Positions 1-64,000 of a stretch of DNA of 64,000 nucleotides are shown here, piece after piece. The number at the start of each line of letters is the position of its first letter. The stretch's first letter is position 1. Position numbers and translations under genes: made by a program. The DNA is from Loxodes magnus. Its lineage: Eukaryota; Ciliophora; Karyorelictea; Loxodida; Loxodidae. Below the pieces are notes generated by a model, which made no database searches, was not told where the DNA came from, and worked only from the letters and a program-made list of their open reading frames with translations. The DNA is taken from the NCBI GenBank assembly GCA_946699065.1, contig CAMPDV010000293.1, forward strand, positions 124,001-188,000, in the 5' to 3' direction.

Positions 1-856
1 TCCCATAGTCTCACCGTCTAATCTCAACTTCCCGATACGATGAACTCTGAATCACTGGATATAGCTACAGATGATAAGAATCAGTGTGACCACTCATGGT
101 CTTACAGGTACCTGTCTTGACGTTCCATAGTCTCACCGTCTTATCTCAACTTCCCGATACGATGAACTCTGAATCACTGGATATAGCCACAGATTATACA
201 TAATCTGTGTGACCACTCATGGTCTTACAGGTACCTGTCTTGACGTCCCATAGTCTCACCGTATAATCTCCACTTCCCGATACGATGAACTCTGAATCAC
301 TGGATATAGCCACAGATCATACCTAACTAGTGTGACCACTCATGGTCTTACAGGTACCTGTCTTGACGTCCCATAGTCTCACCGTATAATCTGCACTTAC
401 CGATACGATGAACTCTGAATCACTGGATATATCCACAGATGATACCTAACTAGTGTGACCACTCATGGTCTTACAGGTACCTGTCTTGACGTCCCATAGT
501 CTCACCGTAGAATCATGACTTCCCGATACGATGAACTCTGAATCACTGGATATAGCCACAGATGATACCTAACTAGTGTGACCACTCATGGTCTTACAGG
601 TACCTGTCTTGACGTCCCATAGTCTCACCGTCTAATCTCAACTTCCCGATACGATGAACTCTGAATCACTGGATATAGCCACAGCATATACATAACTAGT
701 GTGACCACTCATGGTCTTACAGGTACCTGTCTTGACGTCCCATAGTCTCACCGTCTAATCTCAACTTCCCGATACGATGAACTCTGAATCACTGGATATA
801 GCCACAGCTTATACATAACTAGTGTGACCACTCATGGTCTTACAGGTACCTGTCTT
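1..856 (-). pseudogene. WD40 array segment, frames before first shared deletion
   Basis: About seven blades. The stretch 1-74 is in a different frame from 78-856 because one base is missing in the first unit. Stop triplets occur at TGA-D-TAG turns (plus-strand CTAATCTCAAC) and at S-TAG-V positions in most blades. A few blades use rarer turns, such as AD-Y and GD-Y. It has no start or end of its own and runs off the window edge. It is broken under the standard code; read through, it is continuous with the array upstream of the deletion at 857. Confidence 0.6.
75..78. other. Frame break: one base missing in first unit
   Basis: The CCATAG anchors at 5 and 127 are 122 apart instead of 123. The plus strand reads GATGATAAGAATC where other units have GATGATACAGAATC, so one C is missing. 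I saw this junction only once. Confidence 0.8.
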
Positions 857-861
857 GAATC
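857..861. other. Frame break: shared one-base-shorter junction, copy 1
   Basis: Plus strand CTTGAATCCCATAG in place of CTTGACGTCCCATAG. The anchor spacing is 122. On the minus strand the reading after Trp-Asp shifts, losing VKTG. Confidence 0.88.
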
Positions 862-1346
862 CCATAGTCTCACCGTATAATCTGCACTTACCGATACGAT
901 GAACTCTGAATCACTGGATATAGCCACAGATGATACCTAACTAGTGTGACCACTCATGGTCTTACAGGTACCTGTCTTGACGTCCCATAGTCTCACCGTC
1001 TAATCTCAACTTCCCGATACGATGAACTCTGAATCACTGGATATAGCCACAGATGATACCTAACTAGTGTGACCACTCATGGTCTTACAGGTACCTGTCT
1101 TGACGTCCCATAGTCTCACCGTAGAATCATGACTTCCCGATACGATGAACTCTGAATCACTGGATATAGCCACAGCTTATACATAACTAGTGTGACCACT
1201 CATGGTCTTACAGGTACCTGTCTTGACGTTCCATAGTCTCACCGTAGAATCATGACTTCCCGATACGATGAACTCTGAATCACTGGATATAGCCACAGAT
1301 GATACATAACTAGTGTGACCACTCATGGTCTTACAGGTACCTGTCT
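861..1346 (-). pseudogene. WD40 array segment between two shared deletions
   Basis: Four blades between two copies of the same one-base-shorter junction. The turn codons include AD-Y, TGA-D-TAG and HDS; strand a uses S-TAG-V-SS and V-TAA-A. Because the same deletion flanks both ends, the segment could have been copied as a unit with one of its borders. There is no open run above 60 codons. Confidence 0.55.
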
Positions 1347-1352
1347 TGAATC
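1347..1352. other. Frame break: shared one-base-shorter junction, copy 2
   Basis: Same CTTGAATCCC form four units from copy 1. The anchor spacing is again 122 (1233 to 1355). Confidence 0.88.
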
Positions 1353-60100: not shown

Positions 60101-60835
60101 TGTGTGACCACTCATGGTCTTACAGATACCTGTCTTGACGTCCCATAGTCTCACTGTCTAATCATAACTTCCCGATACGATGAACTCTGAATCACTTGAT
60201 ATAGCCACAGATAATACATAATCTGTGTGACCACTCATGGTCTTACAGGTACCTGTCTTGACGTCCCATAGTCTCACCGTCTTATCTCTACTTCCCGATA
60301 CGATGAACTCTGAATCACTGGATATAGCCACAGATCTTACAGAATTTGTGTGACCACTCATGGTCTTACAGGTACCTGTCTTGACGTTCCATAGTCTCAC
60401 CGTAGAATCATGACTTCCCGATACGATGAACTCTGAATCACTTGATATAGCCACAGATCTTACAGAATTTGTGTGACCACTCATGGTCTTACAGGTACCT
60501 GTCTTGACGTTCCATAGTCTCACCGTCTTATCTCTACTTCCCGATACGATGAACTCTGAATCACTGGATATAGCCACAGATAATACATAATCTGTGTGAC
60601 CACTCATGGTCTTACAGGTACCTGTCTTGACGTCCCATAGTCTCACCGTCTCATCATCAGTTCCCGATACGATGAACTCTGAATCACTGGATATAGCCAC
60701 AGCAAATACCTAACCTGTGTGACCACTCATGGTCTTACAGATACCTGTCTTGACGTTCCATAGTCTCACCGTATTATCTCTACTTCCCGATACGATGAAC
60801 TCTGAATCACTGGATATAGCCACAGATAATACATA

Positions 60836-60842
60836 ATCTAGT
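60836..60842. other. Frame break: one-base insertion
   Basis: ATAATCTAGTGTG in place of ATAATCTGTGTG, in the variable strand a cluster. It looks like a fusion of the AATCTGTG and AACTAGTG variants, as unequal exchange or template switching would give. It is unique in the window. Confidence 0.85.
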
Positions 60843-63800
60843 GTGACCACTCATGGTCTTACAGGTACCTGTCTTGACGTTCCATAGTCTCACCGTCTTA
60901 TCTCTACTTCCCGATACGATGAACTCTGAATCACTGGATATAGCCACAGATCATACATAATCTGTGTGACCACTCATGGTCTTACAGGTACCTGTCTTGA
61001 CGTTCCATAGTCTCACTGTCTAATCATAACTTCCCGATACGATGAACTCTGAATCACTGGATATAGCCACAGATCTTACAGAATCAGTGTGACCGCTCAT
61101 GGTCTTACAGGTACCTGTCTTGACGTTCCATAGTCTCACCGTCTCATCTCTACTTCCCGATACGATGAACTCTGAATCACTTGATATAGCCACAGATCAT
61201 ACATAACTAGTGTGACCACTCATGGTCTTACAGGTACCTGTCTTGACGTTCCATAGTCTCACCGTCTTATCTCTACTTCCCGATACGATGAACTCTGAAT
61301 CACTGGATATAGCCACAGATAATACATAATCTGTGTGACCACTCATGGTCTTACAGGTACCTGTCTTGACGTTCCATAGTCTCACCGTCTCATCTCTACT
61401 TCCCGATACGATGAACTCTGAATCACTGGATATAGCCACAGATCATACATAACTAGTGTGACCACTCATGGTCTTACAGGTACCTGTCTTGACGTCCCAT
61501 AGTCTCACCGTCTAATCTGCACTTCCCGATACGATGAACTCTGAATCACTGGATATAGCCACAGATGATACAGAATTTGTGTGACCACTCATGGTCTTAC
61601 AGGTACCTGTCTTGACGTTCCATAGTCTCACCGTCTTATCTCAACTTCCCGATACGATGAACTCTGAATCACTGGATATAGCCACAGATCTTACAGAATT
61701 TGTGTGACCACTCATGGTCTTACAGGTACCTGTCTTGACGTCCCATAGTCTCACCGTCTCATCTCTACTTCCCGATACGATGAACTCTGAATCACTGGAT
61801 ATAGCCACAGATCATACATAACTAGTGTGACCACTCATGGTCTTACAGGTACCTGTCTTGACGTTCCATAGTCTCACCGTATAATCATAACTTCCCGATA
61901 CGATGAACTCTGAATCACTGGATATAGCCACAGATCTTACAGAATTTGTGTGACCACTCATGGTCTTACAGGTACCTGTCTTGACGTTCCATAGTCTCAC
62001 CGTCTTATCTCTACTTCCCGATACGATGAACTCTGAATCACTGGATATAGCCACAGATAATACATAATCTGTGTGACCACTCATGGTCTTACAGGTACCT
62101 GTCTTGACGTTCCATAGTCTCACCGTCTCATCTCTACTTCCCGATACGATGAACTCTGAATCACTTGATATAGCCACAGATCATACATAACTAGTGTGAC
62201 CACTCATGGTCTTACAGGTACCTGTCTTGACGTCCCATAGTCTCACCGTCTTATCTGCACTTCCCGATACGATGAACTCTGAATCACTGGATATAGCCAC
62301 AGCATATACCTAACTAGTGTGACCACTCATGGTCTTACAGGTACCTGTCTTGACGTCCCATAGTCTCACCGTCTTATCTCAACTTCCCGATACGATGAAC
62401 TCTGAATCACTGGATATAGCCACAGATAATACATAACTAGTGTGACCACTCATGGTCTTACAGGTACCTGTCTTGACGTTCCATAGTCTCACCGTATAAT
62501 CATAACTTCCCGATACGATGAACTCTGAATCACTGGATATAGCCACAGATCTTACAGAATTTGTGTGACCACTCATGGTCTTACAGGTACCTGTCTTGAC
62601 GTTCCATAGTCTCACCGTCTTATCTCTACTTCCCGATACGATGAACTCTGAATCACTGGATATAGCCACAGATAATACATAATCTGTGTGACCACTCATG
62701 GTCTTACAGGTACCTGTCTTGACGTTCCATAGTCTCACCGTCTCATCTCTACTTCCCGATACGATGAACTCTGAATCACTTGATATAGCCACAGATCATA
62801 CATAACTAGTGTGACCACTCATGGTCTTACAGGTACCTGTCTTGACGTCCCATAGTCTCACCGTCTAATCTGCACTTCCCGATACGATGAACTCTGAATC
62901 ACTTGATATAGCCACAGATAATACATAATCTGTGTGACCACTCATGGTCTTACAGGTACCTGTCTTGACGTCCCATAGTCTCACCGTCTCATCTCTACTT
63001 CCCGATACGATGAACTCTGAATCACTGGATATAGCCACAGATAATACATAATCTGTGTGACCACTCATGGTCTTACAGGTACCTGTCTTGACGTTCCATA
63101 GTCTCACCGTCTCATCTCTACTTCCCGATACGATGAACTCTGAATCACTGGATATAGCCACAGATCATACATAATCTGTGTGACCACTCATGGTCTTACA
63201 GGTACCTGTCTTGACGTTCCATAGTCTCACCGTAGAATCATGACTTCCCGATACGATGAACTCTGAATCACTGGATATAGCCACAGCTTATACATAACTA
63301 GTGTGAACACTCATGGTCTTACAGGTACCTGTCTTGACGTCCCATAGTCTCACCGTAGAATCATGACTTCCCGATACGATGAACTCTGAATCACTGGATA
63401 TAGCCACAGCTTATACCTAACTAGTGTGACCACTCATGGTCTTACAGGTACCTGTCTTGACGTCCCATAGTCTCACCGTCTAATCATAAATGCCCGATAC
63501 GATGAACTCTGAATCACTTGATATAGCCACAGATAATACATAACTAGTGTGACCACTCATGGTCTTACAGGTACCTGTCTTGACGTCCCATAGTCTCACC
63601 GTCTCATCTCTACTTCCCGATACGATGAACTCTGAATCACTGGATATAGCCACAGATCATACATAATCTGTGTGACCACTCATGGTCTTAAAGGTACCTG
63701 TCTTGACGTCCTATAGTCTCACCGTATTATCTCAACTTCCCGATACGATGAACTCTGAATCACTTGATATAGCCACATATAATACAGAATTTGTGTGACC

Positions 63801-64000
63801 ACTCATGGTCTTACAGGTACCTGTCTTGACGTTCCATAGTCTCACCGTCTCATCTCTACTTCCCGATACGATGAACTCTGAATCACTGGATATAGCCACA
63901 GATAATACATAATCTGTGTGACCACTCATGGTCTTACAGGTACCTGTCTTGACGTTCCATAGTCTCACTGTCTAATCATAACTTCCCGATACGATGAACT
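60842..64000 (-). pseudogene. WD40 array segment at window end
   Basis: About 26 blades in one frame, continuing beyond the window. Runs lie at 61197-61439, 61812-62177, 62379-62792, 62865-63161 and 63732-63968. The order RDE, DYVLS, RDK, NSVRS, YDY repeats at five-unit spacing. Near 63708 the Trp codon of RLWDV is TAG, a stop at a tetrad residue. Since the minus-strand reading enters from this side, any true N-terminal region would lie beyond 64000. Confidence 0.57.
61877..62860 (-). repeat. Three-unit block shared at five-unit spacing
   Basis: Units with YDY, RDK and RDE turns at 61877-62245 recur at 62492-62860 (offset 615). The two units between them differ from the matching flank, so only part of the five-unit period is conserved. 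Confidence 0.75.

What the first reader, a model, noticed from the sequence alone, without database searches (positions are those of the whole stretch)
1..64000. All three stop triplets are concentrated at recognition-face codons
In-frame TAA, TAG and TGA occur many times, overwhelmingly at the variable positions: TGA or AGA before the turn Asp, TAG or GAG after it, TAG or TAT in S-x-V, and TAA, TGA, TTA or TCA in V-x-(S/A). Ciliates such as Condylostoma are known to read all three as sense, so a reassigned code would join these into very long frames. The alternative is that variable codons mutate freely in unexpressed DNA. The clustering is seen; the code reading is inference.
Basis: partly seen in the sequence, partly recalled or inferred. 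Interest (0 to 1): 0.85.

Follow-up and report, generated by a model that had tools for sequence, protein, structure and literature searches.

The report
WD40 repeats read with reassigned stops
A long tandem array of WD40-propeller repeats in a ciliate genome (probably Loxodes magnus) is full of TAA, TAG and TGA because this organism reads them as glutamine and tryptophan, and they sit where the binding face of related real proteins varies.

Summary
The minus strand is about 520 tandem 123-bp WD40 units. In 508 units of exactly 123 bp there are 427 in-frame stop triplets, 414 at four of 41 codons: 14, 16, 32 and 34. Three of these are known top-face contact positions of WD40 blades.

The code reading is right. 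In the window's own 705.7-Mb genome, conserved genes carry TAA/TAG at Gln and internal TGA at Trp, with TGA also ending actin. Size and code fit the published Loxodes magnus macronuclear assembly, NCBI table 27. Seven-bladed WD40 genes of this genome use the same triplets at the same codons in open frames; the Trp of blade 6 is TGA in 17 of 17. The clustering follows because the framework has no Gln and one, TGG-coded, Trp.

A giant translated protein is not supported: about 397,000 unit copies, frameshifts, a broken edge, near-neutral framework changes. Best reading: a satellite, about 49 Mb by extrapolation, grown from a fast-evolving recognition-gene family resembling fungal WD40 receptors. 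Transcription was not testable.

The parts
1..64000 (-). Part of one 123-bp tandem array of WD40 blade units (about 520 copies); sampled stretches of the same contig from C293:66,566 to its end at 386,592 also hold units on the same strand
   Evidence: TRF; unit alignment; Pfam; contig samples; edge. The contig between the samples was not read.
26681..60751 (-). Longest stretch without a length-changing indel: 277 units, 34,071 bp, one open frame if TAA, TAG and TGA are sense
13523..13645 (-). Example unit with four in-frame stop triplets: TGA at codon 5, TAG at 14, TAA at 16, TAG at 34
18..29 (-). Example of the b-c turn: S(AGT 27-29) W(TGA 24-26) D(GAT 21-23) Q(TAG 18-20), that is codons 31 to 34
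   Evidence: sequence, checked
1..18000 (-). Sub-array rich in TAG at codons 14 and 34; the rest of the window is richer in TGA at 16 and in AGA at 32. The boundary lies between about 16 and 20 kb
   Evidence: 8-kb bins; base composition step

Best explanation
The host, most likely the karyorelict ciliate Loxodes magnus, reads TAA and TAG as glutamine and TGA as tryptophan inside genes, and uses TGA as terminator. The 123-bp unit is one blade of a WD40 propeller. Codons 14, 16, 32 and 34 encode residues at the d-a edge and the b-c turn of the blade, the usual protein-contact side, and vary among a handful of words; Gln and Trp words belong to that repertoire. The framework contains no Gln and a single, nearly fixed TGG Trp, so TAA, TAG and TGA can hardly appear anywhere else: that is why they cluster. 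In real genes of this genome the same blades form closed seven-bladed propellers behind a pentapeptide-repeat segment and a RING-like or kinase N-terminus. The window is a satellite array amplified from such blades; it keeps the family's repertoire but is probably not translated as one protein. SHOWN: the code in conserved genes; the same triplets at the same codons in genes with open frames; seven blades; copy number; shared repertoire. INFERRED: species name, lack of translation of the array, recognition function, direction of descent from gene to array.
For: Code: beta-tubulin L062 against PDB 5ubq, 13 of 13 TAR at Gln and 3 of 3 TGA at Trp (counted by eye). Actin-like L061: TGA at a Trp column, and the frame ends KCF-TGA. 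eRF1 L037: 9 of 18 TAR at Gln (by eye). The 20 best of 150 tubulin places all have in-frame TAA, some also TAG. WD40 genes: 17 of 24 gene loci pass a pattern test for one frame from blade 1 to the C-terminus, each with seven blades; blade 6 Trp is TGA in 17 of 17; 68 central blades hold 29 stop triplets, 26 at codons 14, 16, 32, 34. Structure model of one such domain: 28 strands, mean pLDDT 94.1, pTM 0.92; top PDB matches include seven-bladed WD40 proteins. R1-2, R1 and D-1, which correspond to codons 14, 16 and 32, are described as the top-face hotspots of WD40 proteins (PMC3419727 passages). Selection in central gene blades: pN/pS 1.61 at variable, 0.44 at framework codons; a 34-codon C-terminal segment of 15 genes has median dN 0.089 and dS 0.34. 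Array: 397,114 exact matches of a 31-base unit pattern genome-wide; amino-acid repertoire at six variable codons correlates between 68 gene blades and 941 array units, rho 0.59-0.89; the gene beside this array differs from units at the array's edge at 0.5 of 7 codons on average, the other 16 genes at 2.0-3.75. Host: 705,730,643 bases against a published MAC assembly of 706 Mbp with 231 Mbp of tandem repeats and table 27.
Against: Suppressor tRNAs and transcripts were not examined. In actin-like L061 only 4 of 15 TAR align with Gln in the best PDB hit, the other 11 with scattered residues (by eye). Seven of 24 gene loci did not pass the one-frame test: broken, spliced, or missed by the pattern (L006 looks continuous by eye). 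L031, the gene beside the array, changes frame in its C-terminal tail. Among framework variants of the array synonymous ones are somewhat over-represented (19 of 67 possible against 41 of 221, Fisher p = 0.089, odds ratio 1.7; Mantel-Haenszel 1.8 by mutation type), so weak or past coding constraint is not excluded; those 941 units come from one contig. One gene unit tested genome-wide occurs nowhere but in its own gene.
Confidence: 0.88

Rival explanations
1. Standard code; the array is decayed, unexpressed DNA in which variable codons picked up stop mutations freely.
For: The array itself has frameshifts (10 of 519 full units) and framework changes close to neutral.
Against: Conserved genes of the same genome are full of the same triplets at Gln and Trp columns. 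WD40 genes with open frames and purifying selection in their C-terminal segment use the same triplets at the same codons. Stop words are not depleted but frequent at the variable codons.
Confidence: 0.02
2. The array is one or several giant genes, translated into proteins of hundreds of WD40 blades under the reassigned code.
For: Up to 277 consecutive units stay in one frame; all sampled units of the contig lie on one strand; weak excess of synonymous framework variants.
Against: Genes of the family that passed the frame test have seven blades, 17 of 17. The array is out of frame in four independent ways within 64 kb, ends inside a unit in unrelated sequence, runs in samples to the contig end, and the unit occurs about 397,000 times.
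Confidence: 0.05
3. A targeted mutagenesis process, comparable in effect to a diversity-generating retroelement or somatic hypermutation, writes new words into codons 13, 14, 16, 32 and 34.
For: Framework DNA is almost invariant at synonymous and nonsynonymous sites alike while a few codons carry many words; at codon 16 all four bases occur at the middle of T-N-A (TTA 110, TGA 101, TCA 86, TAA 73 of 508); variable-codon pN/pS is 6.0 in the array.
Against: Unequal exchange plus diversifying selection in genes, followed by amplification, gives the same pattern and is the published account for fungal WD40 receptors (PMC4986451 passages). Genes show pN/pS 1.61 at the same codons. No template locus or enzyme was looked for.
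Confidence: 0.05
4. The concentration is an assembly or sequencing artefact.
For: The assembly paper itself suspects misassembly of low-complexity repeats (PMC11441545), so array lengths are uncertain.
Against: The same triplets at the same codons occur in unique-flanked genes on many contigs. The reads were PacBio circular consensus.
Confidence: 0.01

Closest known systems
Karyorelict nuclear genetic code (NCBI table 27: UAA and UAG = Gln, UGA = Trp or stop by context), described for Loxodes magnus in PMC11441545
   Same: TAR at Gln and internal TGA at Trp columns, TGA at the end of actin; assembly size matches.
   Different: Nothing observed differs. The context rule (distance to the poly-A tail) was not tested here.
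Fungal HNWD/NWD receptors with highly similar WD40 repeats (het-d, het-e, het-r of Podospora anserina)
   Same: Near-identical WD40 repeats of about 41-42 aa, shared between paralogues; variable positions with the same spacing: theirs 10, 11, 12, 14, 30, 32, 39 (PMC12222747 passage), here 13, 14, 16, 32, 34 after an offset of two that I chose; pN/pS above 1 there.
   Different: Different phylum and code. In the three genes scanned no NACHT was listed; the N-terminus is RING-like (below cut-off) or a kinase, then pentapeptide repeats. Genes have a fixed seven blades. There is a satellite of about 397,000 units.
Condylostoma magnum code (all three stop codons sense, PMC4967479 passages)
   Same: UAA and UAG = Gln, UGA = Trp inside genes.
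   Different: There UAA and UAG also terminate; in the two actin frames looked at here the terminator is TGA.
Tetrahymena LRR genes with tandem 90-bp exons (PMC6564038 passages)
   Same: A ciliate recognition-type repeat family expanded by tandem repeats of uniform length; abundant in pericentromeric and subtelomeric regions.
   Different: LRR instead of WD40, exon units between introns, about 72,000 exons; here continuous 123-bp units.

Membership tests
Karyorelict code (NCBI table 27) | TAA and TAG encode Gln | tested here: met
   beta-tubulin 13 of 13; eRF1 9 of 18; actin-like L061 4 of 15; counted by eye against the best PDB hit each
Karyorelict code (NCBI table 27) | TGA encodes Trp inside genes | tested here: met
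   beta-tubulin 3 of 3; actin-like L061 1 of 1; blade 6 Trp of the WD40 family 17 of 17
Karyorelict code (NCBI table 27) | TGA is the only terminator | tested here: inconclusive
   TGA follows the last conserved codon (KCF) in L048, L060 and L061; no wider survey
Karyorelict code (NCBI table 27) | Stop or sense decided by distance to the poly-A tail | not testable with these tools
   needs transcripts
Karyorelict code (NCBI table 27) | Cognate tRNAs for UAA and UAG | not tested
   no tRNA search of the genome was made
Karyorelict code (NCBI table 27) | Host is a karyorelict | tested here: inconclusive
   Assembly size 705,730,643 fits the 706-Mbp Loxodes magnus MAC assembly; lineage; no rRNA check
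WD40 repeat domain (PF00400) | Profile match of the unit | tested here: met
   E 3.6e-49, 163.5 bits for four window units
WD40 repeat domain (PF00400) | Closed propeller of 6 to 8 blades in genes | tested here: met
   seven blades in 17 of 17 genes that passed the frame test; model with 28 strands, pTM 0.92; seven-bladed PDB matches
WD40 repeat domain (PF00400) | Closed propeller in the window array | tested here: not met
   about 520 units in tandem, no gene boundary inside the window
Fungal HNWD receptors | High identity between repeats with a few hypervariable positions on the contact face | tested here: met
Fungal HNWD receptors | NACHT nucleotide-binding domain | tested here: not met
   three genes scanned; no NACHT among the 25 families shown of 35 to 40 per protein, nor in the N-terminal parts of L031 and L008 scanned alone; the kinase gene L006 is cut at its N-terminus
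Fungal HNWD receptors | Repeat number varies between alleles | not tested
   one assembly only; seven blades in each of the 17 genes that passed
Fungal HNWD receptors | Self or non-self recognition | not testable with these tools
   needs genetics
Satellite DNA | Long tandem arrays of a short unit in very high copy number | tested here: met
   397,114 exact unit matches, about 49 Mb or 6.9% of the assembly if each is one 123-bp unit
Satellite DNA | Not translated | tested here: inconclusive
   frameshifts, near-neutral framework changes, p = 0.089 for a synonymous excess; no transcript data

The most novel reading that the evidence does not exclude
The arrays are a living reservoir of recognition-face variants: blades move between satellite and seven-bladed receptor genes by unequal exchange or conversion, and the stop-free interior code makes this safe, because every word that mutation can write at a variable codon is sense. 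At codon 16, for example, T-N-A gives Leu, Ser, Gln and Trp by one base, where the standard code would give two stops. This would be a recognition-diversity system in a ciliate that depends on its genetic code. For it: the gene next to the array shares its edge variants (0.5 of 7 codons against 2.0-3.75 for 16 other genes), 2 of 68 gene blades are identical over 123 bp to sampled array units, and Trp at codons 14, 16 and 32 of gene blades is TGA in 14 of 14, against 8 of 40 in flanking parts. Against it: the one gene blade counted genome-wide occurs only in its own gene, and exchange cannot be told from plain descent.
Probability: 0.2. Interest if true: 0.85.

Novelty: new variant of a known kind. 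Interest (0 to 1): 0.62.

Why it matters
It turns an apparent wreck of stop codons into a readable repertoire and is a clean test case: in this genome a standard-code scan would discard as pseudogenes a large, fast-evolving family of propeller genes (1,542 candidates of a first look at one C-terminal domain, 150 scored) whose contact face is written partly in reassigned codons. The family resembles fungal non-self receptors in its pattern of variation but has another architecture and another phylum, and it is tied to a satellite of about 49 Mb. That makes two questions testable: whether ciliates have a WD40-based recognition system, and whether a code without internal stops makes hypervariable coding repeats easier to evolve. 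In the searches I made, no paper linked Loxodes with WD40 (0 papers), and the Loxodes genome paper passages I saw do not name this repeat.

Tried and rejected
Looked for the unit elsewhere: an exact 24-mer in viral contigs and an exact 27-mer in genome contigs, none found; both collections may leave out the window's own genome. Considered a standard-code decayed array: rejected on conserved genes. Considered repeat-induced point mutation from a fungus: dropped once the genome proved to be that of a ciliate-type code; not tested separately. Considered one giant gene: see rivals. Considered that genes copy their blades from the array: only partly consistent, since the L073 blade 3 unit is unique in the genome; the same count for the L002 blade 3 unit, which does match an array unit, was asked nine times (and again 122) without an answer. 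A pattern meant to count gene units with the full array framework was mis-sized and gave 0; the corrected one gave 13 of 68. In some searches many units seemed to have indels; these were alignment artefacts, and true unit lengths are. The pN/pS of 0.22 for array framework codons is dominated by codons 12 and 21, which I then left out. Rows dropped: 7 of 24 gene loci from codon tallies, units not exactly 123 bp from word counts. The 18S search did not complete. No structure coordinates were available, so the top-face assignment rests on the printed strands and PMC3419727 passages. Papers: PMC11441545 abstract, sections 6, 8, 9, 25, 26 and passages; PMC4986451, PMC12222747, PMC3419727, PMC4967479, PMC6564038 passages only; all others listing only.
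Full report
WHAT IS THERE. The window is a single tandem array, period 123 bp, 520.4 copies by Tandem Repeats Finder. On the minus strand the unit reads [41 protein letters not shown], a WD40 blade (PF00400, E 3.6e-49 for four units). Units were aligned to a template by a wrap-around alignment: 509 of 519 full units are exactly 123 bp, and 10 differ in length by one or two bases through four distinct events, six of the ten being one repeated variant. The longest stretch without such a change is 277 units, window 26,681-60,751.

THE OBSERVATION. 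In 508 units of exactly 123 bp found by an anchor, there are 427 in-frame stop triplets. 414 lie at codons 14, 16, 32 and 34, and 13 elsewhere. 321 units have at least one. Adding samples of the same contig gives 941 units, 746 stop triplets, 730 at the four codons. In 42 units from another contig, C4, 76 of 82 lie there. The WD40 frame is the least stop-ridden of the six (0.84 per unit against 2.2-3.9). Among non-consensus words at the four codons, 23-44% are stop triplets, more than single steps from the consensus would give (0-22%). So the clustering is real, and stops are not selected against there.

THE HOST AND ITS CODE. The window is G000:C293:124001-188000 in a genome of 705,730,643 bases in 7,843 contigs. 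A tubulin search scored 150 of 258 candidates; the 20 best all have in-frame TAA, some TAG, and many lower ones TGA. eRF1 and actin places show the same. Against the best PDB hits, counted by eye: beta-tubulin L062 has 13 of 13 TAR at Gln and 3 of 3 TGA at Trp; eRF1 L037 has 9 of 18 TAR at Gln; the divergent actin-like L061 has 4 of 15 TAR at Gln and 1 of 1 TGA at Trp. L061 also ends KCF-TGA, so one gene shows TGA as sense and as terminator. PMC11441545 reports a 706-Mbp macronuclear and an 848-Mbp micronuclear assembly for Loxodes magnus, 231 and 359 Mbp of them tandem repeats, and translation table 27, in which UGA is Trp or stop by context (sections 8 and 9). The species is therefore an inference from size and code; the 18S search did not complete.

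REAL GENES WITH THE SAME CODONS. Short runs of the unit sit inside genes. L008, L031 and L002 read, under table 27, from a RING-like or coiled N-terminal part through pentapeptide repeats (PF00805 in L031) into WD40 blades; the RING matches are below the Pfam cut-off. L006 has a kinase domain instead (PF07714). A 94-residue C-terminal domain of L008 has 1,542 first-look candidates in the genome, of which 150 were scored and all listed. I fetched 20 of these places and, with four earlier ones, tested 24: 17 pass a pattern test for one frame from blade 1 to the C-terminus, each with seven blades at constant spacing (L002 shows six by the pattern because one GH reads GQ). In these 17 genes the Trp of blade 6 is TGA every time. 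Their 68 central blades hold 29 stop triplets, 26 of them at codons 14, 16, 32 and 34 and 3 at codons 25 and 26. 13 of 68 central blades have the full array framework at DNA level, and six of those carry a TAA, TAG or TGA at codon 14, 16, 32 or 34. A 34-codon C-terminal segment of 15 genes has median dN 0.089 and dS 0.34; central blades have pN/pS 1.61 at eight variable codons and 0.44 in the framework. These genes look functional, with diversifying change on one face.

WHY THE STOPS CLUSTER. The array consensus [41 protein letters not shown] has no Gln in its framework and one framework Trp, codon 39, which is TGG in 492 of 508 units. If TAR is Gln and TGA is Trp, these triplets can be common only where Gln and Trp are allowed, at the variable codons. 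Codons 14, 16 and 32 match the R1-2, R1 and D-1 positions, named as top-face hotspots of WD40 proteins in PMC3419727 (passages); codon 34 is the residue after the turn Asp. A model of the L002 domain with 17 aligned sequences has 28 strands, mean pLDDT 94.1 and pTM 0.92; in its first blade codon 14 falls just before strand a, 16 inside it, and 32 and 34 in the b-c turn (my reading of the printed strands). The best PDB matches are WD40 domains, including designed seven-bladed ones and WDR5.

WHAT THE ARRAY IS. A 31-base unit pattern with six free bases occurs 397,114 times in the genome, about 48.8 Mb or 6.9% if each stands for one unit; 17,368 of these, 4.4%, have TGA at codon 32. On C293 the samples from 66,001 to the contig end all hold units on one strand, and the array breaks off inside a unit at about 66,566. 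In 941 units from this contig, framework changes are nearly neutral: 41 of 221 possible nonsynonymous and 19 of 67 possible synonymous variants occur (p = 0.089), mean site frequencies 0.0017 and 0.0019; 4 of 10 possible stop-creating framework changes occur. The amino-acid repertoire at six variable codons correlates with that of genes (rho 0.59-0.89). The gene L031, on the same contig about 10 kb from the array edge, is much closer to the edge units (0.5 of 7 codons) than the other 16 genes (2.0-3.75). Two of 68 gene blades equal a sampled array unit, but one gene blade counted genome-wide is unique. The simplest account is amplification from genes of the family, with the repertoire carried along; exchange back into genes is possible but not shown. 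Array lengths are uncertain, since the authors suspect misassembly of such repeats.

COMPARISON. The pattern of near-identical WD40 repeats with hypervariable contact positions is that of fungal HNWD receptors (PMC4986451 and PMC12222747 passages). Their high-dN/dS positions 10, 11, 12, 14, 30, 32 and 39 have the same spacing as the variable codons here after an offset of two. But no NACHT domain was listed in the genes scanned (capped list), so it is not filed as a member. Tetrahymena has a comparable expansion of LRR genes with 90-bp exons (PMC6564038 passages).

VERDICT. Observation confirmed; code reading right and already known for this lineage; giant translated frames not supported; the surrounding gene family and its satellite are the new part.

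Noticed in passing
L063-L082 and one search places: 17 of 20 fetched WD40 genes lie within 30 kb of a contig end (about 20% expected if uniform), and in 19 of 20 the 3' end faces that end: a possible subtelomeric family, though contigs may simply break at satellites.
   Followed up: partly
G000:C293:1-30,000 (L029, L030) and several contig ends (L086, L090, L091): A second satellite with units of about 76-80 bp fills the sampled start of C293 and the ends of some other contigs.
   Followed up: partly
L037 and L038 (G000:C196): Both eRF1 copies read RAQNIKS where the canonical motif, recalled, is TASNIKS; possibly tied to the reassigned code.
   Followed up: no
L006 (G000:C2:2732931-2735957): A kinase domain (PF07714) in front of pentapeptide repeats and WD40 blades, where other members have a RING-like N-terminus.
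   Followed up: no
L046 (G000:C4:2222501-2227500): The C4 array begins just after a kinase-like and WD40-like stretch with many frame changes, as if an array had grown at a decayed gene.
   Followed up: no
window 16,000-20,000: Word usage and base composition shift here: two sub-arrays with different repertoires joined.
   Followed up: no
gene blades 2-5, codons 14, 16, 32: Trp at these codons is TGA in 14 of 14, while flanking parts of the same genes use TGG in 32 of 40; the words seem to spread by exchange rather than by codon preference.
   Followed up: partly
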